A stretch of DNA of 64,000 bases from assembly GCF_036250755.1 (NCBI RefSeq), contig NZ_CP109583.1:8426001-8490000 (forward strand), written 5' to 3'. Below the pieces are notes generated by a model. It had not been told where the DNA came from and searched no databases. It worked only from the letters and a program-made list of their open reading frames with translations. Numbering within the stretch: the stretch's first letter is position 1; every line of letters starts with the position of its first letter. This document shows positions 4,697-33,144 of this stretch, piece by piece. The translations under genes and the position numbers were made by a program. The stretch comes from Streptomyces uncialis (GTDB lineage Bacteria > Actinomycetota > Actinomycetes > Streptomycetales > Streptomycetaceae).

Positions 4697-5494
4697 TCAG
4701 CCCGGCCGCGCCGCCGACACCCGTAGTCGCCGGGTCACCACGGACGCCACCGCGGGGAGCTGCGCGGCCGGGAAGAAGTGGTCCCCGGGGAGCACCTCGT
4801 GGTGGAACGACCCGGCGGTCACGTCCGCCCAGCGGGCCGCCGCCGCCGGTTCGACGGCCAGATCCGCCGTGCCGGTGAGAACGGTGAGGTCCAGCGGCAG
4901 TGGCGGGGACACCGGTGTCGGTACATGGGTCTCCGCGAGGCGGTAGTCCGCGCGGACGATCGGCAGGAACAGATCCCTCAGATCCGGCTCCGCGAGCACC
5001 TCCGCGTTGACCCCGCCGTGTCGGCGCAGCACCTCAAGGAACTCCTCCTCGGGCAGGAGATGCACCTGCCGGTCCCGGGGATGGTGGGGAGCCTGCCGGG
5101 CGGAGGCGAAGAAGTGCACGAGCGTGCGGGCGTGCCCCGGGTCCGCGAGGAGCAGCCGCAGCACCTCGTAGCCGATCGTCGCCCCCATGCTGTGTCCCAG
5201 CACGGCCGTCGGCCGGTCCAGCAGCGGGGCGATCGCGTCCGCCGCGCCCCGGGCGAGCTCGTCGAGGCTCCGGGCCGGGGGCTCCTTGATCCGGCGCTCA
5301 CGGCCCGGGTACTGGACGGCCCACGCCTCGATGTCGGGAGGCAGTGCCTTCGGCCAGTCCCGGAAGAATCCGGCGGAACCGCCCGCGTGCGGGAGGAGGA
5401 TCAGCCGGGAGGTGGCGTCCGGCCGTGCCTCCAGGGGGCGCAGCCAGGCCGCTTCCGGCCCGGCGTGTGTCCCCTGCCCGTGTACCGCTCCCAC
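4697..5494 (-). CDS. Type II thioesterase of the siderophore cluster
   Basis: A 265-residue alpha/beta hydrolase of the type II (GrsT/YbtT/RifR) thioesterase family, which cleaves stalled or wrong acyl groups from carrier domains of NRPS and PKS lines. Family marks are LILLPHAGGSAGFF near the N-terminus, VQYPGRE, the nucleophile elbow GHSMGA (Ser about 102), and a C-terminal GDHFF holding the catalytic His. The GTG at 5494 follows GGAGGCA closely; a longer form from 5539 is possible but adds only low-complexity sequence. It is transcribed away from the ABC pair at 6054 and has an iron-box-like promoter at 5551-5583. Because neither the PKS nor the NRPS proteins end in a thioesterase domain, this enzyme may also take part in product release. 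Confidence 0.88.
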   Translation of the reverse strand: MGAVHGQGTHAGPEAAWLRPLEARPDATSRLILLPHAGGSAGFFRDWPKALPPDIEAWAVQYPGRERRIKEPPARSLDELARGAADAIAPLLDRPTAVLGHSMGATIGYEVLRLLLADPGHARTLVHFFASARQAPHHPRDRQVHLLPEEEFLEVLRRHGGVNAEVLAEPDLRDLFLPIVRADYRLAETHVPTPVSPPLPLDLTVLTGTADLAVEPAAAARWADVTAGSFHHEVLPGDHFFPAAQLPAVASVVTRRLRVSAARPG

Positions 5495-5550
5495 ACTGCC
5501 TCCGCCTCGCCCCGGTGAACGGGGAGTCCGCCCGCGCACCGCTCCGGGCC

Positions 5551-5583
5551 GTCGGTAAGTCGTACCTTAATCAATTGCGTCAA
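5551..5583 (-). promoter_or_regulatory. Iron-box-like promoter of the type II thioesterase
   Basis: Reading the minus strand, TTGACG (5583-5578) is followed after 17 bases by ACTTAC. The spacer and -10 contain TAAGGTACGACTTACCGAC (5551-5569), which matches the DmdR1/IdeR iron-box consensus TTAGGTTAGGCTCACCTAA at about 12 of 19 positions. Placement over the core promoter fits iron-dependent repression. Confidence 0.5.
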
Positions 5584-5805
5584 GCTGTCATCAAAACGTC
5601 CCGGCCCTCCCGGGGGTTCCCGGTCAACCGAGCGATGTCGCGAGATCGTTGACATCCCGTCAGTACGAGCGATCATCCGCGACGCTCTGACCTGCCGCGC
5701 CGCTCAACCACGGGAAGTCCGGGGCGGGATCTTCCAGACGCGCCCCACCCGGCCGTGAGGCGTGTTCGTACCGACCCCGGCGGCGCCCTCCCGCTTCATG
5801 GCTGG

Positions 5806-5824
5806 TTAGGCGGGCCTTGCCGAT
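5806..5824. promoter_or_regulatory. Iron box upstream of the YbtPQ-like ABC genes
   Basis: The minus-strand reading ATCGGCAAGGCCCGCCTAA shares GGCAAGGC and CCTAA with the stronger box at 30901-30919 (ATAGGCAAGGCTTACCTAA). It lies about 230 bases before the start of the first ABC gene, in the divergent region 5495-6053. Match to the DmdR1 consensus is partial, so the call rests on its resemblance to the other boxes in this locus. Confidence 0.5.
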
Positions 5825-6053
5825 TAATGACGACCTGTTGCAAACTAACGCTGCGTCGGCCTCGGGCCATCCCCCGCGCCGGGGTCGGCGCCTTCCCTCC
5901 GTCTGCCCAGGGGTCCGCCATGACCGAAGCGCGACACCCGGCCCGCACCACCGGCCGGCCACCTCCCGCACCGTGTCCGGCGGCCCGCCCGCGCCGCCGC
6001 CCCCTACCGCGATCGCCCCGCACCGCTCGTACCCGCCCTTCTGGAGCACCCTG

Positions 6054-7826: not shown

Positions 7827-9565
7827 TCCGCAAGCTCTTCCAGGTCGCCGGACCCGAGAGCCGGGGCCCGATGACCGCGCAGTTCGTGGCGCTGATCGTC
7901 TACAGCGTCCTGCAAGGCGCCGCGTTCGTCCTCGTCGTCCCCCTGCTCGGCAGTCTCCTCGGTGACGATCCCGGCGACGCCTGGCCCTGGGCCGCCGCCC
8001 TCACCGTCGTCGCCCTGGCCACCGCCGTCGCCCACTACCTCCAGCAGATGATCGGCTTCCAGGTCGCGCTGGCCGTCTCGCACCGCCTCTACCACCGCCT
8101 CGGCGACCATGTGTCCACCCTGCCGCTCGGCTGGTTCTCCGGCGAACAGGTCGGCAGGCTCGCACAGTTGGCGTCACGCGGCGTTCCGCAGGTGCGCGGG
8201 TTGCTGGCCCATCTGCTGCAACCCCTGCTGTCCGCCGTCCTGACCCCGCTGACCGTGATCGTGGCGATGGTCTTCTACGACTGGCGGCTCGCCGTCGCCA
8301 CCGCCGCCGGTGTCCCCGTGATGTACCTCGCCTACCGCTGGGCCGTCGGCGCCACCGCCCGCGCCGACGAGGCCGTCGACGCCGCCGCCGCGGCGGCCAA
8401 CGAACGCGTCGTCGAGTACGTCCGCGCCCAGCCCGTCCTGCGGACCACCGGCGGCGGCGCCCGCGGCCGCGCGCTGCTGGAACGCTCCCTCACCGAACAG
8501 GACGCCGCCGCGCGGGCCCAGACCGCCCGGACCGCGCCCGGCCGCACCGCCTTCAGCGCGGTGGTCCTGCTCGCCGTCGCCTCGGTGATCGTGACCGGCG
8601 CCGCGCTCGGACTGCGCGGCGGCGCCGACATCGCCGAACTCGTCGCCACCCTGGTCCTCGTCGTACGGTTCGCCGAACCCGTCTCCGGCATGGCCGAACT
8701 CGGCGCCGGCCTGCGTGCCGCGAGCGGCGCGCTCGACCGGATCGACGCCGTCCTGTCCACCGCGCCCCTCCCCGAGCCCACCACCCCCGGCCCCGGCCCC
8801 GCCGACTCCTCCGTCACCCTGCGGGACGTCCGCTTCGGCTACGACGACGGTGTCCCCGTCCTCGACGGGGTGAACCTGGAACTGCCCGCCCGCACCACCA
8901 CCGCCGTGGTCGGACCCTCCGGCTCCGGCAAGACCAGCCTCATCCGGCTCCTCGCCCGCTTCTGGGACACCGGCACCGGAGCCGTGCTGCTCGGCGGCGT
9001 CGACGTCCGCGACCTGACCGGTGAGCAACTGCGCACCCAGGTCTCCCTGGTCTTCCAGGACGTGTACCTCTTCGACGCCACCATCCGGGAGAACATCGCC
9101 GTCGGCCGGCCCGACGCCGACGACATGCGGATCGCGGAAGCCGCCCGGCTGGCCGGGGTCGACGAGATCGTGGCCCGGCTGCCCCAGGGCTGGGACACCC
9201 CCGTCGGCGAGGGCGGCACCGCGCTGTCCGGCGGCGAACGCCAGCGGGTCTCCCTCGCCCGCGCCCTGCTGAAGGACGCGCCCGTGCTGCTCCTCGACGA
9301 GGCGACCTCGTCACTGGATCCCGCCAACGAGGCCGCCGTGCAGCACACCCTTGACGCCCTCACCGGACGCCGCACCCTGGTCGTCGTCGCACACCGGCTC
9401 CAGACCGTGGTCCGCGCCGACCGGATCGTCTTCCTCGACGGCGGACGGATCACGGAGAGCGGCACCCATGAGGAACTGCTGGCCCTCGGCGGGCGCTACG
9501 CCGACTTCTGGCGGGAGCGCGGCAGCGCCCAGGGCTGGCAGCTCGCCCGGCAGGTGACACGGTGA
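7823..9565 (+). CDS. Siderophore ABC transporter, TMD-NBD half (YbtQ/IrtB-like)
   Basis: The 580-residue partner of the preceding half-transporter, with the same order of domains: six transmembrane helices, then an NBD with Walker A GPSGSGKTS, signature LSGGERQR and Walker B VLLLDEATSS. Both NBDs keep a glutamate after the Walker B aspartate, so both ATP sites may be active. The start is fixed by the ATGA overlap with the upstream gene, giving MIRKLFQVAG at the N-terminus. The stop overlaps the GTG start of the TetR gene, so transporter and regulator are one transcription unit. Import of the ferric siderophore is inferred from context; export of the apo-siderophore is the alternative. Confidence 0.88.
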   Translation: MIRKLFQVAGPESRGPMTAQFVALIVYSVLQGAAFVLVVPLLGSLLGDDPGDAWPWAAALTVVALATAVAHYLQQMIGFQVALAVSHRLYHRLGDHVSTLPLGWFSGEQVGRLAQLASRGVPQVRGLLAHLLQPLLSAVLTPLTVIVAMVFYDWRLAVATAAGVPVMYLAYRWAVGATARADEAVDAAAAAANERVVEYVRAQPVLRTTGGGARGRALLERSLTEQDAAARAQTARTAPGRTAFSAVVLLAVASVIVTGAALGLRGGADIAELVATLVLVVRFAEPVSGMAELGAGLRAASGALDRIDAVLSTAPLPEPTTPGPGPADSSVTLRDVRFGYDDGVPVLDGVNLELPARTTTAVVGPSGSGKTSLIRLLARFWDTGTGAVLLGGVDVRDLTGEQLRTQVSLVFQDVYLFDATIRENIAVGRPDADDMRIAEAARLAGVDEIVARLPQGWDTPVGEGGTALSGGERQRVSLARALLKDAPVLLLDEATSSLDPANEAAVQHTLDALTGRRTLVVVAHRLQTVVRADRIVFLDGGRITESGTHEELLALGGRYADFWRERGSAQGWQLARQVTR

Positions 9566-10587
9566 CAGCGGCCCGGGGCCGCCCGGGGCGGCGCCCTCTG
9601 GTCGACCGCGACTCCGTCCTCGCGGCCGTCGTCGAACAGGGCTTCGGCACCGTCACGGTCAGCTCGGTCGCCCAGCGGCTCGGTATCCGGCCGTCCACCC
9701 TGTACCGCTACTTCGCCAACCGCGACGAGATGGTGGCCGCCGCCGTCGAAACCTGCTTCGCCCGTGTCCCGCAGCAGGCCGAAGGGCACGGCTGGCGCGC
9801 CCGGCTGGCCTCCGGGGCCTGGGGACTGTGGGGTGTGTACGCCGCGCATCCCGGTCTCGCCGAGGCGGTCGTCGTCCAGCCCACCTCGCCCCCGGCGCTC
9901 GCCATCCGGATGGACCGGATGGCGGTGCGGCTGCTGGAGAGCGGATTCCAGCCCATCGACGCGGTCCTCGCGGTGGACGTCATCGGTGAACTGGCCCTCG
10001 ACACCTTCCTGCTGGGACGTATCACCACGGGCCCCCGGGCCGACGGCACCGGCGCGCTCACCGCCCGCCGCGGCCGGATCGAGGCGGCGACCCCGCTGCT
10101 GGACCCCCGGCTGCGCGGACCCATCGAGCACGCGGTCGTCTGCTCCCCGCGCGCCTGGTTCGGACGCAAGCTCGACCTGGTGCTCGACGGCCTGACCGAC
10201 CGCGCCCCCGCCCCCGGCGCCCCGGCCTCCGACACCCCGGTCCTCGCGAAACCGGTCCCCGGCACCCACGTCCCCGCGACCCCGGCCACCTACGAACCGG
10301 CCTGCGACACCCACGCCCCCGAGACCCGCGTGCCCGAGACCCAGGCACCTGGTACCCCGCCCACCGGGGAATCCGCCTCCTCCCAGCCGGACGCCTCCGG
10401 TACGGACGCCACCGGTACCGCCACGACCGGTACCGCCACGACCGGCACCGCCACGACCGGTACGAGCGCCGCCGGCAAGGCCACCCCCGCCAAGGCCACC
10501 CCCGCCACAGCCGCCCCCGTCACAGCCACCGGTACGGACGCCACCGCCCCCGGCGTCCCGGACCAGGCCGCACCACCACCGAGATGA
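9562..10587 (+). CDS. TetR-family regulator with long low-complexity tail
   Basis: A 341-residue TetR/AcrR regulator. The N-terminal HTH is clear (VTVSSVAQRLGIRPSTLYRYFANRDEMVAAA) and the ligand domain ends near WFGRKLDLVLDG (about residue 210). This ending is shared with the TetR at 28046-28771, so the two are probably related regulators flanking the biosynthetic operon. The last about 130 residues are an unusual Thr/Ala/Pro/Gly-rich tail encoded partly by a 15-base tandem repeat (10411-10455). Such a tail is not part of the family and may be disordered or neutral. The GTG start overlaps the ABC stop (GTGA). It probably senses the siderophore or a precursor and controls the transporter operon; iron boxes suggest a second layer of control. 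Confidence 0.85.
   Translation: MTAARGRPGRRPLVDRDSVLAAVVEQGFGTVTVSSVAQRLGIRPSTLYRYFANRDEMVAAAVETCFARVPQQAEGHGWRARLASGAWGLWGVYAAHPGLAEAVVVQPTSPPALAIRMDRMAVRLLESGFQPIDAVLAVDVIGELALDTFLLGRITTGPRADGTGALTARRGRIEAATPLLDPRLRGPIEHAVVCSPRAWFGRKLDLVLDGLTDRAPAPGAPASDTPVLAKPVPGTHVPATPATYEPACDTHAPETRVPETQAPGTPPTGESASSQPDASGTDATGTATTGTATTGTATTGTSAAGKATPAKATPATAAPVTATGTDATAPGVPDQAAPPPR
10411..10464 (+). repeat. 15-base tandem repeat inside the TetR tail
   Basis: ACCGGTACCGCCACG is repeated at 10411, 10426 and 10441 (one base changed in the third) with a partial fourth copy. It encodes repeated Thr-Gly-Thr-Ala-Thr. Because the unit is a multiple of three, copy-number change would lengthen or shorten the tail without a frameshift. 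Confidence 0.85.
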
Positions 10588-10686
10588 CCATCACCGGGGC
10601 GGGTACGGGTGGGGCCGGCCCGACCCCGAGCGGGCCGGACACGGGAGTGGCGACTGGGCTGCGCACACTCCCGGGTCCGGCCGGTC

Positions 10687-10721: not shown

Positions 10722-10793
10722 GCACCACCTGGGCGGTTCGGCATCACCTGGGCGGTGCGGCACGAGTCGGGCCGTCCGGCGCCACCTGGGCGG

Positions 10794-12425
10794 TCAGACC
10801 GCCGACCGTGGCGTGCCACCGTCCCGCTGCGCCCGTACCAGTTCCCCCCAGGCGGCCAGCGTGGGCTCCAGGGCCAGGTCCGCCACCTTCAGCCGTACCC
10901 CGAAGGCGCTCCACTTGCTGGCGACCGTCATCAGGCCCACCGAGTCGAGCCCCTGCGCGATCAACGACCGTTCGTCATCGACCAGTTCGACGGGGCAGCG
11001 CAGCGCCTCCGCGATGTCCGCCCGCATCCGCTCGACGCTCAGCCCCGTGTCCCGGTCCGCCCGGTCCGGTGCCGCCGCGTCCACGCCGGGTGCCTGGGCC
11101 GCCACCACGCTCAAGGACACACTGCGCAGCTTCTCGCAGGTCTCCGTGAACTCCCGCTCCGGCAGCGACTGCCCGACGATCCCGGCCCCCGCCCGCAGCC
11201 AGGTGCGCTCCCCCCGCTGATACACGGACCGCAGCACCAGCGCCACGTCGAACGACCCGTCCTGGTCGACGGTGAGCACCGCGCCGCCGTACAGCCCCCG
11301 GGGATCGCGCTCCAGCCGCCGGATGCAGACGTTGGCCGCGGACTTGGGCACCCCGGACACCGTGACCGCGGGGAACAGCGACGCGAGGGCGTCCCAGCCG
11401 TCGCGGCCCGGGGCGAGCGTCCCCGCCAGCTCCGAGGCGAGGTGCTGCGCCGTGCCGCGAGGCTTGACCGACATGTAGTCGTGCACCGCCACCGAGCCGG
11501 GGACACAGATGTCCGCCAGCTCGCCGAACGACGTACGGACCGTCACCGCGTGCTCGTAGAACTCCTTCGGGTCCGCGAGCAGTTCCCGGCGCAGCCGGTC
11601 GTCCTCGCCCGCCTCCCCGGTCAGCGCCCGGGTCCCGGCCAGCGGCTGGGTCCGCACCCGTCCGCCGGGGTCGACGGCCAGCACGATCTCCGGACTGAAC
11701 CCGGCGGCCCGCAGTCCGTCCAGACCCAGCAGGAACGAACGGGCGGGGGTGTTGCGGGAGCGGCCCAGCAGATAGGTGCGGGCGATGTCCACCGGCTCCC
11801 GGACCGGCACCGAACGCGACAGGATCACCTTGCGGGGGCTGCCGTCCCGGCCCTCCCGGATCTCCTGCGCCGCGCTGGAGACCGCCTTGAGGTACAGCTC
11901 GGAGTCCTCGCCCGCCAGATCCACCGGCACCGTACGGCCGACCTCGATCGCGGTCGGGTCGAGGGCCGCCGCCGTGCGCTCGGCCGCCTCGGGGTCCAGG
12001 GCCCGGATCACGGCCGTGCCGTCCGTGATCCGGGTCTCCACCGCCGGGACGATAAGCCGCAACAGCACCTGGTCGCGTGGGAGTTCAGCCAGTGACGGCG
12101 TACCCGCGTAGGCCAGTTCGAAGGCGGCCGTGCCGTAGGCGCGCCAGTCCTCGAACGGCAGCCCGGCCAGCAACTGCCTTACGACCGGCCCGGGATGTCC
12201 TTCCCAGGGCGCGGTGCGCTCCCCGTCCGGCGCGCTCAGCCGCACCTCGGCCGGGGTGACCGTCAGCTCGGCCGCCGCGCCCACCGCGACGGACCAGGTC
12301 CCGTGCCGCTCGTACAGCACATGGGGGGTGTCCGCGGCCCGCATCGCGAGGCGGACGGCGACCGTCAGCGGATCACCGGGCACAGGTGTCGAGAGGGTGT
12401 GGTAAAGCCGCGGGGATGATGTCAT
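10794..12425 (-). CDS. Salicylate synthase fused to an aryl carrier protein domain
   Basis: A 543-residue fusion. Residues 1 to about 440 are a chorismate-using enzyme of the MbtI/Irp9/YbtS salicylate synthase group, which makes salicylate from chorismate through isochorismate. Visible marks are KVILSRSV, TQPLAGTRAL, ASLFPAVTVSGVPK and the C-terminal catalytic block GLYGGAVL...TWLRAGAGIV...EREFTETCEKL, close to MbtI. Residues about 470-530 form a carrier domain with the phosphopantetheine site GLDSVGLM (Ser about 495) and a Trp-rich helix like the aryl carrier domain of EntB. The protein therefore seems to make the aryl starter and also carry it. The ATG at 12425 overlaps the ligase stop (ATGA). 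This is the last gene of the operon. I do not recall this fusion in characterised pathways. Confidence 0.88.
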   Translation of the reverse strand: MTSSPRLYHTLSTPVPGDPLTVAVRLAMRAADTPHVLYERHGTWSVAVGAAAELTVTPAEVRLSAPDGERTAPWEGHPGPVVRQLLAGLPFEDWRAYGTAAFELAYAGTPSLAELPRDQVLLRLIVPAVETRITDGTAVIRALDPEAAERTAAALDPTAIEVGRTVPVDLAGEDSELYLKAVSSAAQEIREGRDGSPRKVILSRSVPVREPVDIARTYLLGRSRNTPARSFLLGLDGLRAAGFSPEIVLAVDPGGRVRTQPLAGTRALTGEAGEDDRLRRELLADPKEFYEHAVTVRTSFGELADICVPGSVAVHDYMSVKPRGTAQHLASELAGTLAPGRDGWDALASLFPAVTVSGVPKSAANVCIRRLERDPRGLYGGAVLTVDQDGSFDVALVLRSVYQRGERTWLRAGAGIVGQSLPEREFTETCEKLRSVSLSVVAAQAPGVDAAAPDRADRDTGLSVERMRADIAEALRCPVELVDDERSLIAQGLDSVGLMTVASKWSAFGVRLKVADLALEPTLAAWGELVRAQRDGGTPRSAV

Positions 12426-14113
12426 GCGGGACTCCGTCGCTCGGCCTTCGAGGGGGGCTGGTGCGGTCGGTGCGTGGTGCGGGACCGTTCGGCGGCCCGC
12501 GCGGTCAGGGCCCGCCGGTCGACCTTGCCGACCCCGGTGACGGGCCAGCCGCCGGCGGTCTCCACCTGGTCGGGCCGTTTGAACGCGGCCAGTCCCGCGG
12601 CCCGCAGATGGTCGGCCAGGACCGGCGCGGTCAGCGCCGCCGGATCGGTGCCCGGGGCGGGCCGTACCCAGGCGCACACCCGTTCCCCGAGCACGTCGTC
12701 GGGGACCCCGACCACCACCACCGCGTCCACCGCCGGATGGCTCAGGAGATGCGTCTCCACCTCCTCCGGGGACACCTTCTCCCCGCCGCGGTTGATCTGC
12801 TCCTTGACCCGGCCCTCGACGACGAGGTCGCCCGCCGCCGTGCGCCGCACCAGATCACCGGAGCGGTAGTGGCCGTCGGGCGTGAACGCGACGGCGTTGT
12901 GCGCCTCGGCTCGGTAGTAGCCGCGCAGGGTGTACGGGCCCCGGGTGAGCAGTTCGCCGGTGGTCCCGTCGGGCACCGGGGCGCCGTCCTCCCCGACGAC
13001 GAGGATCTCGTCGTCGGGCGAGACGGGGCGCCCCTGGGTCGTGGCCACGACCTCCGGCGGGTCGTCGGCACGGGTGGCGCACAGCAGCCCCTCCGCCATG
13101 CCGAAGACCTGTTGCAGCCCGCAGCCCAGCGCGCCGGGCAGTGCACGGGCCGTCGCCTCCGGCAGCCGGGCGCCGCCGACCTGCACCAGCCGCAGACTGC
13201 CCAGATCCGCCGGGACCCAGGCGGCGGCCTTCGTCCACAGCGCCGCCAGCGGCGGCACCAGCGCGGTCACGGTCACCCGCTCCCGTTCGATCAGCGGGAA
13301 GACCTCCGGCGGACTCGCGACCTCGGTGAGCACGGTCCGGCTGCCCGCGACGATCGCGCCGAGCAGCCCCGGGCACGCCAGCGGAAAGTTGTGGCCGACC
13401 GGCAGCACCGCCAGATATGTGTCGTCGGGCGTCAGCCCGCACCACGCGGCCATGGTGCGCGCGTTGTACGCGTAGTCGTCATGGGTGCGCGGGATCAGCT
13501 TCGGCAGCCCCGTGGAACCGCCGGACAGCAGCAGCAGCGCGGGCCCCGAGGGGTCGGGGTCCGGCCCGGCCAGCGGCTCGTGCGCGGTGAGCGAGCCGAA
13601 CGGCACCTCGCCGGGGCCCGCCTCCCCGACGGTCACCAGATGCCGCACCGAGGGACACGCCTCGTGCAGCCCCTCGGTGACCGGCGGACCGTCCGGGGCC
13701 CGCGCACCGCCCGTACCCACATAGGCGACGGCCCCGGACAGCTCGCTCAGATACCGGATCTCGGTCCGGCCGTGCGCGGGCAGCGCGAGGACCGGCAGCG
13801 CGCCGAGCCGGAACAGCGCGAAGCACAGCACCGCGAACTCCGTCCGGTTCGGCAGATGCACCACCACCCGGTCGCCCGGCGCGACACCGAGCGAGCGCAG
13901 TCCGGCGGCGGTCCGGTCGGCCGCGTCGTCCAGCGCGGTGAACGACCAGCGGCTGTGCTCGTCGGCCACCGCGATCCGCTCGCCGTGCGCCCCGGCCGCC
14001 TCGCGCAGCAGCCCGCCCAGCGGGACACCGCGCCAGTGGCCCGCCGCGCGGTACCGCTCGGCGAAGCCGGCCGGCCAGGGAACGAATCCTTCGGCCACGG
14101 TGCTGTTCGGCAT
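12422..14113 (-). CDS. Salicyl-AMP ligase (YbtE/MbtA/DhbE family)
   Basis: A 563-residue stand-alone adenylation enzyme that should activate salicylate with ATP and load it on the aryl carrier domain encoded by the next gene. Family features include GFVPWPAGFAERYRAAGHW at the N-terminus, the P-loop-like motif LLLLSGGSTGLPKLIPRTH, the aryl-acid loop VLPVGHNFPLACPG, FGMAEGLLC, YRSGDLVR and the C-terminal Lys in TGVGKVDRR. The ATG at 14113 is chosen over one at 14155 because GGAAGGAGCAGC precedes it and homologues begin near this point. It sits 59 bases after the methyltransferase gene, the widest gap in this part of the operon, and overlaps the salicylate synthase start. 2,3-Dihydroxybenzoate is an alternative acid but no DHB genes are present. 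Confidence 0.9.
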   Translation of the reverse strand: MPNSTVAEGFVPWPAGFAERYRAAGHWRGVPLGGLLREAAGAHGERIAVADEHSRWSFTALDDAADRTAAGLRSLGVAPGDRVVVHLPNRTEFAVLCFALFRLGALPVLALPAHGRTEIRYLSELSGAVAYVGTGGARAPDGPPVTEGLHEACPSVRHLVTVGEAGPGEVPFGSLTAHEPLAGPDPDPSGPALLLLSGGSTGLPKLIPRTHDDYAYNARTMAAWCGLTPDDTYLAVLPVGHNFPLACPGLLGAIVAGSRTVLTEVASPPEVFPLIERERVTVTALVPPLAALWTKAAAWVPADLGSLRLVQVGGARLPEATARALPGALGCGLQQVFGMAEGLLCATRADDPPEVVATTQGRPVSPDDEILVVGEDGAPVPDGTTGELLTRGPYTLRGYYRAEAHNAVAFTPDGHYRSGDLVRRTAAGDLVVEGRVKEQINRGGEKVSPEEVETHLLSHPAVDAVVVVGVPDDVLGERVCAWVRPAPGTDPAALTAPVLADHLRAAGLAAFKRPDQVETAGGWPVTGVGKVDRRALTARAAERSRTTHRPHQPPSKAERRSPA

Positions 14114-14172
14114 CGCTGCTCCTTCCACCGGTGTCTGATGTGCGGGGCCTGTCATGGCGCAGGGGCCGGGGA

Positions 14173-24700: not shown

Positions 24701-25052
24701 CGGCGGGCCGCACCTCGTGCGACAGCCGCTCACGCAACGCGGCCAGCTCCGCCTCGCGCGCCGCCACGGACAGCCGCCGCAGATCCACCACATCGGGCAC
24801 GAAGGGCGGCGCGTCCGGCAGCACCCGCTGCTCCATGCTGTCCGGCAGCATCACGGCCCGCAGCATGTCGTGCCGTTCGACCAGCAGCCGCCAGGCGGTC
24901 GCGAACCGCTCCGGATCCAGATCGCCGTCGAACTCGAAGTACGCGTGGGTGGACACATTGCCCAGCGCGAACATGTCGCCCCGGCCCAGCAGATACGCCC
25001 GCTGCGTGTCGGTGAGCGGGAAGGGCGCGTACCGCTCGTCGTCGGTGCTCAC
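21786..25052 (-). CDS. NRPS module Cy-A-PCP (heterocyclising)
   Basis: A 1088-residue module that should condense salicylate with Cys, Ser or Thr and cyclise to a thiazoline or oxazoline. The N-terminal domain is a cyclisation (Cy) domain: FPLTDTQRAYLLGR, RHDMLRA, the signature DGLVCDFAS (DxxxxDxxS, residues 142-150) and SQTPQVFLDVQ. The adenylation domain has LFTSGSTGTPKG, YRTGDLGRYL and ANGKVDRA. Its code reads about D-M-F-N-F-G-V-L-W-K, closest to cysteine codes (D-L-Y-N-L-S-L-I-W-K). The carrier site is FFALGGDSLL, with a helical docking-like tail. The GTG start at 25052 comes from the GTGA overlap with the upstream gene; no internal ATG fits better. No thiazolinyl reductase gene is present, so the ring should stay a thiazoline. 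Confidence 0.9.
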   Translation of the reverse strand: MSTDDERYAPFPLTDTQRAYLLGRGDMFALGNVSTHAYFEFDGDLDPERFATAWRLLVERHDMLRAVMLPDSMEQRVLPDAPPFVPDVVDLRRLSVAAREAELAALRERLSHEVRPADRWPLFGVTVARLRDDLVRVFIGFDGLVCDFASWHVLSGELSLLYTDPGAVLEPLSGSFREYVLAERALRDGEEYREAEAYWHKRIAELPPPPRLPLAADPGQLARSRFVRREAELPRADWARLTARARSAGLTPSALLLAVFAEVLAAWSEEARFTVNVPRMNRLPLLPRVERLVGEFASFSLVEVDNRARDTFEERALRIQRRLWEDLSHHQVSGAWMLRELARLHNSMDRARMPVVLTSTLAWADPEGTALDRIWTQVHGVSQTPQVFLDVQLDERQGRLVYNWDSVDELFPAGMPEAMFEAFRALLERLAHSRWRSTGLEVLPPDQRARREAVRGRPRELPAVPAHAAFLRRAAEDPGRTAVVTSAGELGYGRLARRAAGVASLLTDGGRGPGPVVGVLLDKGQEQVVAVYGVLLAGAAYLPLDPAMPEVRLRAVLADAGVDTVLVRGGGPHGGLPEGVRAVAVDGELPDVPVPVVEELPQGPGDLLYVLFTSGSTGTPKGVMVEHAGMVNALRETEETFGVGPDDTVLGLTALHHDMSAFDLFGVLGAGGTLVLPDPGAERDPAHWAELLRRHRVTLWNSVPAMLEMMLDDPGAAGALASLRLAFTGGDWIPPELVRSLAELAPNARLVGVGGPSETTLWNIWHPVDALDPAVPGVPYGKPIANTAYHLLDERLRDRPDGVTGEMYVSGVGLARGYWRDTERTAAAFLVHPDTGERLYRTGDLGRYLPDGALEFVGRADLQLKVRGQRIEPAEVEAALALHPGVARAVVTGVPADGGRRGYKALAAHVLGSGGGPDPRELRAHLRERLPEHMVPAAFLRVTAFPLTANGKVDRAALTEAAGRAARPPAGPPQPAGPAGGPLELLLAEEWSRALGVDGVGPDEDFFALGGDSLLGARILTRLRGIFAGERLTARTLFETLTVTGMAEALRGAESAPGRLDLVARLHRTVSALSPEQTAAALDELGRS

Positions 25053-26074
25053 CGCCGCTCCCCCCACAGTTCCGCGGCCCTGGCCAGGCACTGCGCGCGG
25101 GTCCCGGGCGGTCCCACGGCACTCCAGCCCGCGGGCGGACGCCGCCCGGACGGCCATACGGAGAACCGGCCGGCGTCGTTGCGCACCGCCTGATGGTCCG
25201 GGGTGTCCGGCCGCCGGGGAGCCCGCGCGGCCGGCCCGGGAAGCGTTCGCGCGGACAGGAAGGGACAGCGCTCCCACGCCTGCGGCGGGCCGTCGTCGGC
25301 ATCAGGAAGGAAGTACTGCCGCCACTCGCGGTTGTCGGTGTCGCCGTAGCTGCCGAGCGCGGGGGAGGGCGGCACCGTGTCGTAGGCCCGCAGCCGGGCC
25401 CGGATCGTACGGCGGGCCGCGGCGCCCCGGGGGGAGTCGGCCTCCAGCCCCTCGAACACCCAGCGCGGCTGAAACGTGATCATGAAGTCCGCGGCATGCC
25501 GGCTGCGCCGCTCCCCGTGCGCCGGGGTGTTGCAGACGACGAAGATCGGCACCCCGCCGAAGGTGAACTCCCACAGCGGGTCGTCGGGGTCGGTCGGCAG
25601 CTCCGCGGGCCACGGACTGCTGTCCTTGTCCGCGAGATAGCCGAGCACGTCCCAGAACCGCTGCCGGAAGCCGTCCAGCGGCAGCGCGGCACCGCCGGGT
25701 TCGGGCCGGAAGAACACCACGAACGAGGTGTCCTTGCCGAGGGCCTGGTAGCCCTCCAGATAGCGGCGCAGCAGATCGGGCAGCGCCGCCCAGTCGCCGC
25801 GGTCCCCGGCGCCGTCGACGAAGCCGAACCGCAGGGTCCTCTTGCGTGCCGCGGCCACCGCGAAGGTGCAGGGGAAGGGGTGCTCCTGCGAGACCACGGT
25901 CGACAGCAGACCTTCCGCGCTCCGCGGGCCCCAGTGCGGTATTTCACCGATGGTGAGTTCGGGGAGCGTGGCGAGCAAGGAATCGCGTGCGTGCTGAAAC
26001 TTGTTCTCCGGCTCGCTCTCCCGGATGTTTCCGGACTTCATTCCTGAATGGTTCGCGGGGGTGCTTGAGGGCAT
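25049..26074 (-). CDS. YqcI/YcgG-family (putative heme N-oxygenase) fused to MbtH domain
   Basis: A 341-residue two-domain protein. Residues about 30-245 match the YqcI/YcgG family: a FPCTFAV start, then WEFTFGGVPIFVVCNTPAHG, RRSRHAADFMITFQPRWVF and PPSPALGSYGD. Characterised relatives, DcsA (cycloserine) and GntA (guanitoxin), are heme proteins that N-hydroxylate arginine or an arginine-derived substrate, and I recall GrbE of graminine biosynthesis belonging here too. Residues about 297-341 are MbtH-like, with FSVWPSG, PAGWSAV and CLARAAELW in the usual order; MbtH proteins activate NRPS adenylation domains. The fusion could place the oxygenase at the NRPS. The ATG at 26074 is used; its ribosome site GGAG is distant, and an internal ATG at 26041 is possible. 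The gene overlaps the Cy-A-PCP gene. Confidence 0.85.
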   Translation of the reverse strand: MPSSTPANHSGMKSGNIRESEPENKFQHARDSLLATLPELTIGEIPHWGPRSAEGLLSTVVSQEHPFPCTFAVAAARKRTLRFGFVDGAGDRGDWAALPDLLRRYLEGYQALGKDTSFVVFFRPEPGGAALPLDGFRQRFWDVLGYLADKDSSPWPAELPTDPDDPLWEFTFGGVPIFVVCNTPAHGERRSRHAADFMITFQPRWVFEGLEADSPRGAAARRTIRARLRAYDTVPPSPALGSYGDTDNREWRQYFLPDADDGPPQAWERCPFLSARTLPGPAARAPRRPDTPDHQAVRNDAGRFSVWPSGRRPPAGWSAVGPPGTRAQCLARAAELWGERR

Positions 26075-26136: not shown

Positions 26137-27576
26137 TCAGTCGGTGGTGAATTTCTGGAACATGTCCTCGGGGATGATCGGCTGGTGGTAGACGCACGTA
26201 CCCGACAGCACGACGGAACCGTGCAGCCGTGAGGTGGGGATGAGCAGCTTGTCGCCCTCGGACAGCGCGATCCGGTGGGTGACGTTGTGCCAGAAGTGCA
26301 TCTGACCGCTCTCCACCATCACGAGCCGGTGGTCGTCGTGCACATGGGTCGTCGAGGTCTCCTCATGGCTCTCCACGAACGTGTCGAGGTCGACCTCGAT
26401 GTGCTCCGTGGTGAGATGGTCCTGGATGCGCTCGGCGTACGTCTTGAAGTCGTCCACGCGGTCCGCCCAGGCGAGCTGCGCCGTCAGATCGGCGTCCCAG
26501 GCACGGGCGTAGCGGACGGCGTCGGTGAACCCCTCGTGGAACGCGACGACGAAGGACTCGCCGAACAGTTCCGGCAGCGGGCCCAGCAGCCGGTCCACCA
26601 GGTCGTCCGGCTCCAGGGCCGTACCCGCGGCGGGCGGGCGGGGGTACGGGACAGCGTGGCCCAGGGTGTCGCGCAGCGTCGCGGCCAGCGGGGCCGCGGT
26701 CGTCTCCCGCTCGATCAGGAACTGCGCGAGGGCGCCCAGCAGCCGGCCCGGCCTGCCGCCGTCGAGCCCCAGCCCCAGCAGATGGTTGCCCCGCGCCAGC
26801 GAGGAGCCCAGCAGGAACTGCCAGTGCGCGGTGGCGGACGGGCTCAGCCCCGCCCCGGTCCACAGCGCCCGGTAGTCGTCGGCGGCCTCGGTCCAGCGCT
26901 GCCACACCGACAGCAGGAAGGGGCGCAGCCCCGGATGCGCCGCCCCGGTCTCGGCCAGGGCGCCCCGCGCCACCGCGGTGTACGCGGCGGGCAGGAAGGC
27001 GCCCAGCTGCAACAGGAGATAGACGCCCGCGCCGTGTGCGTCCTTGACGCTCGTGGCGGTGGCGAACGCCGTCGGCGGCTCGTCGCGCAGCCCGTCGCGG
27101 TACGCCCGCACCCCGGCCTTGACGGCGTCCACCGTGGGCGCGGCGAGCGGCTCCCGGCCCTCCTCCAGGAAGCCGAAGAGATGGTGTTCGAGCACGGGCC
27201 GGGCGAGCGCCGCGAGCAGCCGGGTGTCCGGCGCGTGGAAGACCGCCCCGTCCGCCCGCGCGGCCGCGTTCCCGTCGGGAGGCAGCAGACCGTGTTCCGC
27301 GTCGTACGCGTTGCGCAGCATCCGGTGCCCCAGCAGCCCGCTGAGCAGCTGTTGCTCATCGGCCGGGAGCACCTTGGAGTAGTCCAGCCAGCCGAGGTCG
27401 TCCGGCCGGACCGGGCGGCGGTACGGGTTGTCCGGGGTCGTCAGTTCCTCGGCGGTCGCGGCCCGGAAGGGGGCAGCGGCCGCGTACGCCTTGAGGATCG
27501 CGTTCGGGTCGCCGTTCAGTTCCGCGAGCGACCGGGCGACGGTACGGGGCGCGGGCGTGTCGTTCTTTTCGGGCAT
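26137..27576 (-). CDS. Large cupin-domain protein, candidate graminine (GrbD-type) enzyme
   Basis: A 479-residue protein and the first gene of the biosynthetic operon. The first about 380 residues are mainly helical with no motif I can name. The C-terminal about 85 residues are a cupin barrel: HVH (411, 413), GDKLLIPTSRLHG with His452, and a closing CVYHQPI. HxH plus a later His, 39 residues on, is the metal-site pattern I recall for the cupin of SznF, the N-nitrosating enzyme of streptozotocin, which also has a helical oxygenase domain before its cupin. However, the HxxxDxxH diiron signature of SznF-type helical domains is not visible here. Position next to the YqcI/YcgG gene suggests the two act together on arginine or ornithine. 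The start has AAAGGTACAGCC upstream. Confidence 0.7.
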   Translation of the reverse strand: MPEKNDTPAPRTVARSLAELNGDPNAILKAYAAAAPFRAATAEELTTPDNPYRRPVRPDDLGWLDYSKVLPADEQQLLSGLLGHRMLRNAYDAEHGLLPPDGNAAARADGAVFHAPDTRLLAALARPVLEHHLFGFLEEGREPLAAPTVDAVKAGVRAYRDGLRDEPPTAFATATSVKDAHGAGVYLLLQLGAFLPAAYTAVARGALAETGAAHPGLRPFLLSVWQRWTEAADDYRALWTGAGLSPSATAHWQFLLGSSLARGNHLLGLGLDGGRPGRLLGALAQFLIERETTAAPLAATLRDTLGHAVPYPRPPAAGTALEPDDLVDRLLGPLPELFGESFVVAFHEGFTDAVRYARAWDADLTAQLAWADRVDDFKTYAERIQDHLTTEHIEVDLDTFVESHEETSTTHVHDDHRLVMVESGQMHFWHNVTHRIALSEGDKLLIPTSRLHGSVVLSGTCVYHQPIIPEDMFQKFTTD

Positions 27577-27950: not shown

Positions 27951-28045
27951 GACCGCATTTCCGTGCCCCGTACGCGATTTGACGGAAGCGGGATCCGGCA
28001 CCCGGCGCGCGAAGCCGGATCGGACGGCCGGCGCGCGGAACCGGA

Positions 28046-28771: not shown

Positions 28772-28906
28772 TGTCCCCGACCGCGGGGCGGTGCCCAGGG
28801 CCCGCCCCCGGGAGCGCCCGGGGCCCGCCTTCGGGGGGCGCTCGCAGGGGCGCGCGACTCACGGAGGAGCCGGTCCGGGGGCCTCCGGGCACTTAATGAC
28901 AGCGAG

Positions 28907-28935
28907 TTGAAAAGAGGTTAGGCTTACCATACTAT
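28907..28935 (+). promoter_or_regulatory. Iron-box promoter with no clear downstream gene
   Basis: TTGAAA (28907-28912), a 17-base spacer and TACTAT (28930-28935) make a near-consensus promoter. Its spacer is filled by the iron box AGAGGTTAGGCTTACCATA (28913-28931), matching 14 of 19 positions of the DmdR1 consensus. It points to the plus strand, where the next about 740 bases (to the terminator at 29675) contain no convincing gene; only a 60-codon GTG ORF at 28949-29131 is in range. The box could also repress leftward transcription of the TetR gene at 28771. Confidence 0.7.
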
Positions 28936-29674: not shown

Positions 29675-29703
29675 CCCGTGTGCGGGGTCGTCCCGCACAC
29701 GGG
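29675..29703. terminator. Hairpin terminator after the siderophore-binding lipoprotein
   Basis: CCCGTGTGCGGG (29675-29686) pairs perfectly with CCCGCACACGGG (29692-29703) around GTCGT. It lies about 70 bases past the stop of the lipoprotein gene. A second smaller hairpin, CGGGCCCA/TGGGCCCG, overlaps it on the left. Confidence 0.75.
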
Positions 29704-29770
29704 GTCGGTCCGCGTACGGGTCAGGGCCGTGCCGTGCCCCCGGGTGCGCGTACGTGTGCCGCGGTGCGGG

Positions 29771-30799: not shown

Positions 30800-30900
30800 G
30801 TCGTTCTCCCCATCCCCGTGCCCACAGCCCCGGATCGTCGTGACACGGCCGCCCTCGCACTGCGGGCCGCCGGGGGCGACTTTACGACAGGCAGTCATTA

Positions 30901-30919
30901 ATAGGCAAGGCTTACCTAA
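30901..30919. promoter_or_regulatory. Iron box at the siderophore-binding lipoprotein promoter
   Basis: ATAGGCAAGGCTTACCTAA matches the DmdR1/IdeR consensus TTAGGTTAGGCTCACCTAA at 15 of 19 positions, the best in the window. On the minus strand TTGACG lies just upstream and the box sits between it and the presumed -10, so bound repressor would block the promoter of the lipoprotein gene. Confidence 0.82.
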
Positions 30920-30953
30920 TATCCGTCAAGTGGTCTACCGCGCAGGGGGGATG

Positions 30954-32033
30954 TCAGTCACGCGGTCCACCGCGCCGGGTCAGCAGCCAGGCCAGATACG
31001 CCCCGCCGAAAAGACCCGTCGCGATACCGGCCGGCACCTCGACCGACGGCAGCGCCCATTGCGTCGCCACATCCGCGCCCGTCAGCAGGAGCGCGCCTGT
31101 CAGCGCGGACGTGGCGATCCCGGGGCCGGGCGCGCGGGTCAGCCTGCGGGCGATCTGCGGAGCGACGAGCGCGACGAACGTGATGGGGCCCGCCGCCGCC
31201 GTCGAGGCGCCGATCAGGGCCACCCCGGTCACGATGGCGATGACCCGGGTCGGCCGCGGCGGGGTGCCGAGCGCCTCGGCCGTGTCGTCGCCGAGGCTCA
31301 GCAGCCCCAGCCCCCGGCTCTGCGCCACCGCGAGCGGCAGCAGCGCCGCCAGCACGACCGCCAGCGGGGCCACCTGGTCCCACGTACGGCCGTTGAGCGT
31401 GCCCGTCAGCCACAGCTGCGCCACCTCGGCCTCCTGGACACGGGAGCGGCTGAGCAGCCACGCGTTGACCGCCGTCGCCATCGCCGCGATCCCGATGCCG
31501 ACGATGATCAGCCGCTGGCTGTGCAGCCCGTCGCGCCAGGTGATGAGCAGCACCACCGCCGCCGTCACGGCCCCGCCCGCCACCGCGGCGACGGAGGTCC
31601 CGAGGGCGCTCGTGTGCCACATCAGGAGGGCGATCAGCGCCCCGGTCGCCGCGCCGCTGCCGAAGCCGATGACGTCCGGGCTGCCGAGCGGGTTGCGGGT
31701 CACGGACTGGAACAGCGCGCCCGAGGCCCCGAGAGCCGTGCCCACCAGGAGCCCCGCCACGGCACGCGGCAGCCGGAACTCCACCACGATGAACCGGGCC
31801 CCGGGCTCGCCGCCGCCCGCGAGCACCCGCAGCACCTCGGGCATCGGGAGCCCGAAGTCCCCGGTGACGCACGCCAGGACGAAGACCACGGCCGTCACCA
31901 CGAGCAGGGCGGCGCCCACGACCAGGACGCGTGGCCGGACCCGTACCGAGAACCGGCGGGTCCGCAGGGTCCGGGTCCGCAGGGGGCGTTGCTTCGGAGT
32001 GCGGGTGCGCGTACGCGAGGCGGTGGCGGTCAT
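30954..32033 (-). CDS. FecCD-type ferric siderophore permease (second subunit)
   Basis: A 359-residue permease of the FecCD/BtuC family, with about nine or ten transmembrane helices. An Arg/Thr-rich N-terminal tail precedes the first helix. Family marks are RLPRAVAGLLVGTALGASGALFQ, then TRNPLGSPDVIGFGSGAA, and the C-terminal GPITFVALVAPQIARRL, which contacts the ATPase. The ATG at 32033 overlaps the stop of the other permease (ATGA), so the two form a heterodimer. No FecE/FepC-type ATPase gene follows; the next element downstream is the lipoprotein promoter. The complex must borrow an ATPase from elsewhere in the genome. Confidence 0.92.
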   Translation of the reverse strand: MTATASRTRTRTPKQRPLRTRTLRTRRFSVRVRPRVLVVGAALLVVTAVVFVLACVTGDFGLPMPEVLRVLAGGGEPGARFIVVEFRLPRAVAGLLVGTALGASGALFQSVTRNPLGSPDVIGFGSGAATGALIALLMWHTSALGTSVAAVAGGAVTAAVVLLITWRDGLHSQRLIIVGIGIAAMATAVNAWLLSRSRVQEAEVAQLWLTGTLNGRTWDQVAPLAVVLAALLPLAVAQSRGLGLLSLGDDTAEALGTPPRPTRVIAIVTGVALIGASTAAAGPITFVALVAPQIARRLTRAPGPGIATSALTGALLLTGADVATQWALPSVEVPAGIATGLFGGAYLAWLLTRRGGPRD

Positions 32034-33091
32034 CGCCCGGACCTCCGGTTCCGTCGGGACAGCACGATCAGCGCGGGCGCCCCGAGGAACGCCGTCACCA
32101 CCGCGACCTCCAGTTCGCCCGGCCGGGTCAGCACCCGGCCCAGCACGTCCGCGGCCAGCAGCAGCACCGCTCCCAGCACCGCCGAGTACGCCAGGATCCA
32201 GCGGTGGTCCTGGCCCGACCGCCGCCGGGCCAGATGCGGGACCGCGAGGCCGACGAAGGCGATCGGGCCGACCGCCGCCGTCGCGCCCCCGCACAGCAGG
32301 GTGACCGCCAGCACCCCGGCCACCCGGGTCCGGGCGGGCCGTCCCCCGAGGGAGGTCGCGACATCGTCGCCGAGGGTCAGGGCGTCCAGCGGCCGGGCGA
32401 GCGCCAGGGCGAGCAGCATTCCGGCCAGCAGCAGCGGCAGGACCTGCCACAGGGTGTCCGCCTGCCGCCCGGCGAGCGATCCCACCGTCCAGAACCGGAA
32501 GGCGTCGAACACCTCCGGCCGCATCAGCAGCACCGCCGTCACCAGGGCCGTGAGCGCCGCCGACAGCGCGGCCCCGGCCAGCACCAGCCGGATCGGGGTC
32601 GCGCCGCCCGGCCCCGCCGAGCCGATGAGATGCACCATCACCGACACGAGCCCGGCCCCGGCCAGCGCGAACCACACATACCCGCTGAAGTGCTGGAACC
32701 CCGCGAAGCCGATGGCGAGCACCGCGCCCGCCGAGGCACCGGAGTTGACCCCGAGGATGCCCGGATCGGCCAGCGGGTTGCGGGTCAGTGCCTGCATCAG
32801 CGCCCCGGCGAGACCCAGGGCCGCTCCGGTGGCGAGGCCCAACCCGGTTCGTGGCAAACGCAGTTCACGGACGAGGGCCTGGTCCGGGCTGCTGCCGTCG
32901 TGGTCGACGAGGGCGTCGAGGACCGTCGCCAGGGGGATGTCCTTGGTGCCGATCGCCACGGAGGCGAGGAGGACGACGAAGAGGACGGCGAGCCAGCCGG
33001 CCAGCCCCGACGCCCGCGCGGGTAACCGCCGTCCGGGCGGCCGTGGCGCTGCCTTCGGTGGTCCCGCGACCCGCTCGGTGACCGTGCCCAT
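32030..33091 (-). CDS. FecCD-type ferric siderophore permease (first subunit)
   Basis: A 353-residue FecCD/BtuC permease. Marks include ELRLPRTGLGLATGAALGLAG, TRNPLADPGILGVNSGASAG and VGPIAFVGLAVPHLARR. The ATG at 33091 has GGGAGACGC directly upstream. An iron box lies about 35-50 bases before the start, so this is the first gene of a two-permease operon under iron control. Together with the lipoprotein at 29771 it would form the import system for a ferric siderophore, parallel to the YbtPQ-like pair at 6054-9565. Confidence 0.92.
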   Translation of the reverse strand: MGTVTERVAGPPKAAPRPPGRRLPARASGLAGWLAVLFVVLLASVAIGTKDIPLATVLDALVDHDGSSPDQALVRELRLPRTGLGLATGAALGLAGALMQALTRNPLADPGILGVNSGASAGAVLAIGFAGFQHFSGYVWFALAGAGLVSVMVHLIGSAGPGGATPIRLVLAGAALSAALTALVTAVLLMRPEVFDAFRFWTVGSLAGRQADTLWQVLPLLLAGMLLALALARPLDALTLGDDVATSLGGRPARTRVAGVLAVTLLCGGATAAVGPIAFVGLAVPHLARRRSGQDHRWILAYSAVLGAVLLLAADVLGRVLTRPGELEVAVVTAFLGAPALIVLSRRNRRSGR

Positions 33092-33125
33092 GCGTCTCCC
33101 GCCCTCCCGCCGCCTTCAAGCCAAG

Positions 33126-33144
33126 TAAGGACAGGCTAATCCAA
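33126..33144. promoter_or_regulatory. Iron box upstream of the FecCD permease operon
   Basis: TAAGGACAGGCTAATCCAA matches the DmdR1/IdeR consensus at about 13 of 19 positions and lies 35 bases before the first permease start. This is where a repressor would overlap a leaderless or short-leader promoter. Confidence 0.65.

What the first reader, a model, noticed from the sequence alone, without database searches (positions are those of the whole stretch)
4697..33144. Candidate salicylate / C-diazeniumdiolate (graminine) siderophore cluster
The operon combines salicylate synthesis and activation, a Cy-A-PCP module, a C-A-PCP module with a formyl-hydroxyornithine code, a KS-AT-ACP module, a YqcI/YcgG heme-oxygenase-family protein and a cupin protein. 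No ornithine N-hydroxylase or formyltransferase is present. Graminine, N5-nitroso-N5-hydroxyornithine, is nearly isosteric with N5-formyl-N5-hydroxyornithine, and from memory its biosynthesis uses the grbD/grbE pair, one of which belongs to the YqcI/YcgG family. A product that joins a salicyl-thiazoline to a diazeniumdiolate would be new to me. Iron boxes and two siderophore transport systems support an iron role.
Basis: partly seen in the sequence, partly recalled or inferred. Interest (0 to 1): 0.95.

Follow-up and report, generated by a model that had tools for sequence, protein, structure and literature searches.

The report
Salicylate-capped chalkophomycin-like metal-chelator gene cluster
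A Streptomyces gene cluster, related to the one that makes the copper-binder chalkophomycin but with salicylate-synthesis genes and likely iron-uptake genes in place of the N-hydroxypyrrole genes, is predicted to make a new small iron chelator that would grip the metal with salicylate and a rare nitrogen-nitrogen (diazeniumdiolate) group.

Summary
The 'cupin' protein (26137-27576) is a SznF homologue that keeps the three cupin histidines and has lost the diiron ligands. The YqcI/YcgG protein (25049-26074) is AglA-like, keeps the heme-ligand cysteine and is fused to an MbtH domain: the ChmM/ChmN (GrbD/GrbE) pair of graminine biosynthesis. The window's KS clade is sister to a chm-type KS (SH-aLRT 99), and its O-methyltransferase is 56% identical. 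Here the N-hydroxypyrrole cassette is absent; a salicylate synthase-carrier fusion and a salicylate-AMP ligase take its place, with FecCD and IrtA-like transporters and iron boxes. Six named relatives, one near-identical, share the type. Best reading: a salicylate-starter, likely iron-regulated variant of the chm type, predicted to make salicyl-thiazoline (or -oxazoline)-methoxypyrrolinone-diazeniumdiolate, [M+H]+ 421.118 or 405.140. Nine literature searches listed no such compound. Product, metal and ring heteroatom are untested.

The parts
26137..27576 (-). SznF/ChmM/GrbD homologue: predicted N-N bond-forming cupin with a degenerate heme-oxygenase-like diiron domain
   Evidence: SznF (6m9r) E 8e-31; cupin H407/H409/H448 kept as H411/H413/H452; the recalled diiron ligands E189,E215,H225,E281,H311,D315,H318 align to A,W,A,L,P,T,E, read by eye; the three His are invariant in 27 of 27 aligned sequences, the window's own included
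25049..26074 (-). YqcI/YcgG protein (ChmN/AglA-like, predicted heme guanidine N-oxygenase) fused to a C-terminal MbtH domain
   Evidence: PF08892 232 bits and PF03621 44 bits in one ORF; AglA E 2e-36; Cys69 kept in 36 of 36 loci with a match, of 41 loci
21786..25052 (-). NRPS Cy-A-PCP, code DMFNFGVLWK (Cys likely; Ser/Thr possible), predicted to form the thiazoline/oxazoline
   Evidence: Pfam; DxxxxD motif FDGLVCD in the translation; code; PDB matches include the heterocyclising BmdB (rows 2-3) and dihydroaeruginoic acid synthetase (row 9), below the top row 6lta, named only nonribosomal peptide synthetase
18376..21789 (-). NRPS C-A-PCP, code DINYWGGIGK (graminine / formyl-hydroxyornithine code)
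   Evidence: Pfam; code; same code in 29 of 41 SznF-homologue loci
15189..18383 (-). PKS KS-AT-ACP (ChmP-like, without room for the R0 domain)
   Evidence: Pfam; KS 59% to the chm-type KS of L041; sister to it in the tree, SH-aLRT 99
14173..15192 (-). O-methyltransferase (ChmQ-like), predicted to make the methoxypyrrolinone
   Evidence: PF00891; 56% to L041 OMT; 52% to a Streptomyces anulatus homologue, 75-78% to the homologues of five named relatives and 97% to S. uncialis
12422..14155 (-). salicylate-AMP ligase
   Evidence: closest solved structure salicylate-AMP ligase 5wm2, E 3e-178
10794..12425 (-). salicylate synthase fused to an aryl carrier protein
   Evidence: TIGR03494 414 bits, cut-off 325; PF00550 at the C-terminus
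4697..5539 (-). stand-alone thioesterase, GHSMG motif, candidate release enzyme
   Evidence: PF00975 148 bits; motif; matches of 44-63% in L013, L014, L020 and L042, none in the held stretches of L011 and L012
5817..9565 (+). ABC exporter-fold pair; the first subunit resembles IrtA of the mycobactin importer
   Evidence: Pfam; for 5817-7826, eight of the top nine PDB rows are named IrtA, the ninth (6tej) drug ABC transporter; YbtPQ entry 6p6i is lower in the list. The second subunit was not searched.
9562..10587 (+). TetR-type regulator
   Evidence: PF00440
28046..28771 (-). TetR-type regulator upstream of the biosynthetic genes
   Evidence: PF00440; matches in L011-L014
29771..30898 (-). substrate-binding protein of the iron-siderophore type
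   Evidence: PF01497
30954..32033 (-). FecCD permease 1 (start codon not fixed)
   Evidence: PF01032
32030..33091 (-). FecCD permease 2
   Evidence: PF01032
30901..30919 (.). iron box (IdeR/DmdR type), upstream of the binding protein
   Evidence: the same box at the same place in Thermocatellispora L012
33126..33144 (.). iron box upstream of FecCD
   Evidence: counterpart in L012 and, weaker, in L014
28913..28931 (.). weaker iron box upstream of TetR and the biosynthetic genes
   Evidence: 5 mismatches of 19

Best explanation
The cluster is a relative of the chalkophomycin cluster that carries genes of the salicylate-synthase, salicylate-ligase and siderophore-importer families, and it is predicted to make a likely iron-scavenging molecule in which salicylate, a likely thiazoline (or oxazoline) ring and a methoxypyrrolinone bearing a C-diazeniumdiolate side chain would be joined. 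Steps, all inferred from homology: the salicylate synthase makes salicylate from chorismate. The ligase loads it onto the carrier domain fused to the synthase. Cy-A-PCP adds and cyclises Cys (or Ser/Thr). The YqcI/YcgG protein hydroxylates the arginine guanidine, and the SznF-like cupin rearranges it to graminine. C-A-PCP adds graminine, and KS-AT-ACP adds malonate. Attack of the graminine amide nitrogen on the thioester, perhaps helped by the stand-alone thioesterase, closes the ring, and the O-methyltransferase caps it. Phenolate O, ring N and the two diazeniumdiolate O atoms give four donors. Export route unknown; uptake by FecCD and/or the IrtA-like pair, under iron control.
For: SznF homologue with kept cupin His and lost diiron ligands, the state reported for ChmM-type proteins, plus YqcI/YcgG with the heme Cys. 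ChmN of this family hydroxylates arginine, and grbD/grbE are essential for graminine. Code DINYWGGIGK in 29 of 41 SznF-homologue loci, and in none of 26 A-domain hits (some repeats of one domain) read from 19 of the 74 other own-genome matches to the C-A-PCP protein. KS sister to a chm-type KS, SH-aLRT 99; OMT 56% to that locus's OMT. Salicylate synthase over the equivalog cut-off; ligase nearest a salicylate-AMP ligase. Gene set shared, as far as the flanks reach, by S. uncialis, Thermocatellispora, S. niveiscabiei and S. triticagri. SalS-ArCP and/or OMT homologues on contigs of matching length there and in Spongiactinospora and Streptomyces NPDC048182 (for S. niveiscabiei SalS and OMT share one contig, which is not the L013 contig). 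Iron boxes, none in the chm-type locus L041. FecCD and an IrtA-like subunit.
Against: No product has been seen. The N-N step has not been reconstituted even for ChmM. The A code is the same for formyl-hydroxyornithine, and a hydroxylase/formyltransferase pair exists elsewhere in the genome; 55 of the 74 other own-genome matches were not read for their code. In chm the starter ligase ChmK is also predicted for salicylate/dihydroxybenzoate yet loads N-hydroxypyrrole, so the ligase alone is not diagnostic. The PKS lacks the R0 domain described in ChmP, so ring closure may differ. Cys/Ser cannot be read: the chm A domain was predicted Cys but the compound has oxazoline. The donor set resembles that of a copper ligand. 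The chm cluster also has an ABC pair (ChmD/E), assigned to efflux, so the window's ABC pair could export. The contrast in iron boxes rests on one chm-type locus; other SznF loci scanned (L016, L020, L037, L042) also have boxes. The box at 28913 has 5 mismatches and lies about 140 bases from TetR. Downstream genes of L011-L014 could not be read directly.
Confidence: 0.7

Rival explanations
1. Same molecule, but its job is copper: a salicylate version of the chalkophore chalkophomycin, made for copper handling or toxicity.
For: Chalkophomycin coordinates Cu(II) through N-hydroxypyrrole, oxazoline and diazeniumdiolate; the predicted donor set here is equivalent.
Against: Iron boxes at the importer genes, none in the one chm-type locus scanned, L041; FecCD and binding protein and an IrtA-like subunit, with no match to these in L041 within 10 kb.
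Confidence: 0.2
2. The C-A-PCP module loads N5-formyl-N5-hydroxyornithine made elsewhere in the genome; the product is a salicyl-thiazoline hydroxamate and the SznF/YqcI pair does something else.
Against: That pair sits beside a modular PKS with no A domain found in 40 kb, though A-type matches at 8624-8626 kb, about 43 kb away, were not read; a second hydroxylase is beside an IucA/IucC gene; the SznF/YqcI pair stands at the head of the operon here, and the code occurs in 29 of 41 SznF loci.
Confidence: 0.07
3. A graminine metallophore without a closed pyrrolinone: the malonate-extended chain is hydrolysed or decarboxylated, and the O-methyltransferase acts on another group such as the phenol.
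For: No room for an R0 domain in the PKS and a hydrolase-type thioesterase in the cluster.
Against: KS and OMT are nearest, outside their own clade, to those of a chm-type locus among the loci compared; phenol methylation would spoil a metal ligand (inference).
Confidence: 0.15

Closest known systems
Chalkophomycin (chm) cluster, Streptomyces sp. CB00271 / S. anulatus (PMC11085572, PMC10849742)
   Same: SznF homologue with degenerate diiron site + YqcI/YcgG heme enzyme, Cy-A-PCP, C-A-PCP with a formyl-hydroxyornithine-type prediction, related KS-AT-ACP and O-methyltransferase (papers; sequence comparison with the chm-type locus L041 of S. violaceusniger).
   Different: Salicylate synthase-ArCP and salicylate ligase replace the N-hydroxypyrrole cassette; no R0 domain; a thioesterase, FecCD permeases, iron boxes and an MbtH fusion are added.
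Gramibactin (grb) and other GrbD/GrbE siderophores (PMC6771848)
   Same: Graminine-making pair with an NRPS and siderophore transport; GrbE-MbtH fusions are already mentioned there.
   Different: Those clusters are from Burkholderiaceae and the text has no occurrence of 'salicyl'; here salicylate start and PKS/OMT end, in actinomycetes.
Streptozotocin SznF
   Same: Same two-domain protein, same cupin histidines.
   Different: Diiron ligands lost; oxidation probably handed to the heme enzyme; built into an assembly line.
Salicyl-thiazoline/oxazoline siderophores (mycobactin, yersiniabactin, pyochelin)
   Same: Salicylate synthase, ligase, Cy-A-PCP, IrtA-like transporter subunit.
   Different: Second chelating arm predicted to be a diazeniumdiolate instead of a hydroxamate or further thiazolines (comparison recalled).

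Membership tests
Graminine (GrbD/GrbE, ChmM/ChmN) pathway | SznF homologue with intact cupin histidines | tested here: met
   27 of 27 aligned sequences, the window's included
Graminine (GrbD/GrbE, ChmM/ChmN) pathway | YqcI/YcgG partner with the heme-ligand cysteine, adjacent | tested here: met
Graminine (GrbD/GrbE, ChmM/ChmN) pathway | A domain with the code seen in graminine clusters | tested here: met
   the code is shared with formyl-hydroxyornithine, so not exclusive
Graminine (GrbD/GrbE, ChmM/ChmN) pathway | Graminine actually made | not testable with these tools
   needs culture and mass spectrometry
Chalkophomycin (chm) cluster | ChmP-like KS and ChmQ-like OMT next to the C-A-PCP | tested here: met
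Chalkophomycin (chm) cluster | N-hydroxypyrrole cassette (two acyl-CoA dehydrogenases, prolyl A, PCP, hydrolase) | tested here: not met
   no acyl-CoA dehydrogenase match in the likely genes of 4697-33144 that were scanned; two in the chm-type locus L041
Chalkophomycin (chm) cluster | R0 domain in the PKS | tested here: not met
   AT match ends at residue 855 and ACP starts at 979; ChmP R0 spans 823-1299
Salicylate-capped NRPS siderophores | Salicylate synthase and aryl-AMP ligase with aryl carrier | tested here: met
Salicylate-capped NRPS siderophores | Iron regulation and ferric-siderophore uptake genes | tested here: met
   sequence level only:
Salicylate-capped NRPS siderophores | Product binds and delivers iron | not testable with these tools
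   needs experiment

The most novel reading that the evidence does not exclude
A starter-unit swap turned a copper chelator into an iron chelator: by replacing N-hydroxypyrrole with salicylate and taking on iron boxes and ferric importers, a chm-type assembly line would have become the source of the first phenolate-diazeniumdiolate siderophore, a light-sensitive, NO-releasing methoxypyrrolinone present in at least two actinomycete families.
Probability: 0.45. Interest if true: 0.75.

Novelty: new variant of a known kind. Interest (0 to 1): 0.6.

Why it matters
C-diazeniumdiolates are a young class of metal ligand; in graminine siderophores they are photoreactive and derive from arginine, by an N-N step not yet reconstituted for the ChmM-type enzyme. 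A compact, single-module-per-protein cluster that joins them to salicylate gives a predicted exact mass to look for, a second system in which to reconstitute the SznF-like N-N step, and a natural test of whether changing the starter unit changes the metal.

Tried and rejected
Formyl-hydroxyornithine supplied from elsewhere: the own genome was searched for Lys/Orn hydroxylases (10 matches, 4 strong). Some neighbours in their 4 kb loci were scanned (ERAP1_C, IucA/IucC, formyltransferase, FecCD, DJ-1), and 40 kb around the hydroxylase/formyltransferase pair was read: modular PKS, no A domain by motif. One search lists A-type matches at 8624-8626 kb and a C-type one at 8618 kb, about 36-43 kb from the pair, which I did not read. 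Kept as a minor rival.

The strict 19-base iron-box consensus with up to 3 mismatches found nothing; relaxed scans did. One search scanned ten sequences (the window and nine of the 41 loci); nine had at least one box and only L041 had none. One of three shuffles of L014 also gave a hit, and the shuffling was by base triplets, so weak boxes (5 mismatches) are not strong evidence one by one.

The A code DMFNFGVLWK could not be settled between Cys, Ser and Thr; it recurs in Nocardia L037-L039 and L043 and Millisia L046, and its first part in L047, of unknown product. The code positions were located by eye on motifs, not from a reference structure.

Among the 41 loci the BLAST table covers all 41. 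The 10 kb flanks end inside the KS-AT gene for L011-L014, so the OMT and salicylate genes there are inferred from contigs of equal length and, for Thermocatellispora, locus tags 003430 (SznF) and 003435 (OMT). The protein searches list only the best 120.

Literature: ten searches sent, nine answered. No salicylate-graminine compound was seen in the listings. The library lacks most subscription papers, so absence is weak.

Full report
Observation. The window lies in a 9.26 Mb, 3-contig genome and is near-identical at this locus to Streptomyces uncialis DCA2648 (SznF homologue 99%, KS 99.8%). The likely genes between 4.7 and 33.1 kb, chosen by third-position G+C among ORFs of 90 codons or more, were scanned with Pfam; one antisense ORF (29883-30350) was not, and smaller genes were not sought. 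From the YqcI gene down to the salicylate synthase seven genes run in one direction; with the starts I chose, five of six junctions overlap by 4-8 bases and one has a 17-base gap, which suggests one operon (coordinates).

The N-N pair. The protein at 26137-27576 matches SznF over residues 47-464 (E 8e-31). Against SznF numbering, the cupin histidines 407, 409 and 448 are kept; the residues I recall as diiron ligands (E189, E215, H225, E281, H311, D315, H318) align to A, W, A, L, P, T and E. The three histidines are invariant in 27 of 27 aligned sequences, the window's own included. The protein at 25049-26074 is YqcI/YcgG, nearest the solved AglA. It keeps a cysteine in the FPC motif that I take as the counterpart of the heme ligand reported for ChmN, as do 36 of 36 loci with a match (of 41). 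It also carries an MbtH domain; fusions of GrbE homologues to MbtH are already mentioned in PMC6771848 (passages). PMC10849742 (parts 1-3 of 7 and passages read) reports that the SznF homologue ChmM lacks its diiron residues and that ChmN is a heme enzyme that hydroxylates arginine at the guanidine. Activity of ChmM itself was not obtained. The window pair is of this type.

The assembly line. The C-A-PCP code is DINYWGGIGK. It occurs in 29 of 41 loci that encode a SznF homologue (held stretches only). It occurs in none of 26 A-domain hits, some of them repeats of one domain, read from 19 of the 74 other own-genome matches; the other 55 were not read. PMC11085572 (parts 1-3 of 6 and passages read) says the ChmO A domain is likewise predicted for formyl-hydroxyornithine although the compound contains graminine. 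That paper assigns the malonyl PKS module and the O-methyltransferase to the methoxypyrrolinone. Over 400 residues or more, the window's KS is 59% identical to the KS of a chm-type locus in S. violaceusniger (L041) and at most 51.5% to other loci outside its clade; two short end pieces of 84 and 113 residues reach 57% and 55%. A tree of 20 KS rows puts the window clade sister to L041 with SH-aLRT 99 (quick method, L041 flagged as a long branch). L041 was identified as chm-type by its two acyl-CoA dehydrogenases, lone A domains, PCP-Cy-A-PCP, KS-AT, ACP and OMT and by gene order; its PKS reads as two overlapping ORFs in the record. The O-methyltransferase is 56% identical to that of L041, 52% to a Streptomyces anulatus protein and 75-78% to those of five named relatives.

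The starter. No acyl-CoA dehydrogenase family matched the scanned genes of the cluster. It has instead a salicylate synthase (TIGR03494 above cut-off) fused to a carrier domain and a ligase whose nearest solved relative is a salicylate-AMP ligase. The ligase alone would not decide: ChmK is predicted the same way and loads N-hydroxypyrrole.

Metal. Two FecCD permeases and a binding protein, and an ABC pair whose first subunit has eight IrtA-named chains among its top nine PDB rows (second subunit not searched), indicate ferric-siderophore uptake. An exporter role for the ABC pair is open: chm has an ABC pair assigned to efflux. Iron boxes lie upstream of FecCD and of the binding protein; both have counterparts in Thermocatellispora L012. 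L041 has none at the same threshold, but it is one locus, and the other SznF loci scanned do have boxes. The predicted donors equal those of the copper ligand chalkophomycin, so copper is a live rival.

Distribution. L011-L014 share the gene set as far as their flanks reach. Contigs of the same length carry the SalS-ArCP and OMT homologues in S. triticagri (205763), Spongiactinospora (452045) and Streptomyces NPDC048182 (164681), where the SznF homologue is too. Thermocatellispora has SalS on 568882, the length of the L012 contig; S. niveiscabiei has SalS and OMT on one 369204 contig, not the L013 contig; the S. uncialis SalS is on 792784, the length of the L011 contig. That makes six named relatives, of two families on the tree labels (Streptomycetaceae, and Streptosporangiaceae for Thermocatellispora). 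In a sample of the family, 12 of 394 genomes have any SznF homologue at E 1e-50, own included, and the 11 others are at most 55% identical, so this type is rare there. Actinacidiphila alni L020 and Streptomyces CBMA29 L042 show a second salicylate + SznF + KS arrangement with a KS of another branch.

Prior art. The literature searches (listings) showed no compound or cluster that joins salicylate and graminine. PMC12971057 (12 of 19 passages) counts graminine as present in under 2% of metallophore regions and says about 20% of regions have two or more chelator pathways, without naming this pair in what I saw. PMC10849742 says over 400 cryptic SznF-homologue clusters were found; its group may have seen this one without describing it in the parts I read. 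PMC11705231 and PMC12154649 were seen as passages only.

Verdict. A salicylate-starter variant of the chalkophomycin type; not a member of the chm family proper, because the N-hydroxypyrrole cassette and the R0 domain were tested and not met. Chemistry and metal are inferred.

Noticed in passing
L020 and L042 (about 4.4-21 kb): Actinacidiphila alni and Streptomyces CBMA29 carry matches to SznF, YqcI, salicylate synthase, salicylate ligase, thioesterase, FecCD and a KS of another branch; L020 also has a siderophore-interacting flavoprotein: a second, separate salicylate + SznF-type cluster.
   Followed up: partly
L037, L038, L039, L043, L047 (Nocardia), L046 (Millisia): SznF/YqcI clusters with the same Cy-A code DMFNFGVLWK (only its first part legible in L047); a KS of another branch in the Nocardia loci; starter unit not seen within the held 10 kb.
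   Followed up: partly
10794-12425: Salicylate synthase fused to an aryl carrier protein; fusions of about 520-550 aa recur in this clade and in a second group at 45-49% identity.
   Followed up: partly
G000 C1 about 8580600-8608300 (L064, L065): A formyltransferase and an ornithine/lysine-type N-hydroxylase stand divergently next to a large modular PKS, a possible N-formyl-N-hydroxy polyketide cluster.
   Followed up: partly
L016 9970-9988: Actinomadura DC4 has a near-perfect iron box (1 mismatch) just upstream of its SznF homologue.
   Followed up: no
42140-54332: Amidohydrolase, X-Pro-type peptidase, an oligopeptide ABC transporter set and an AMP-ligase beyond the cluster; no link to it seen.
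   Followed up: no
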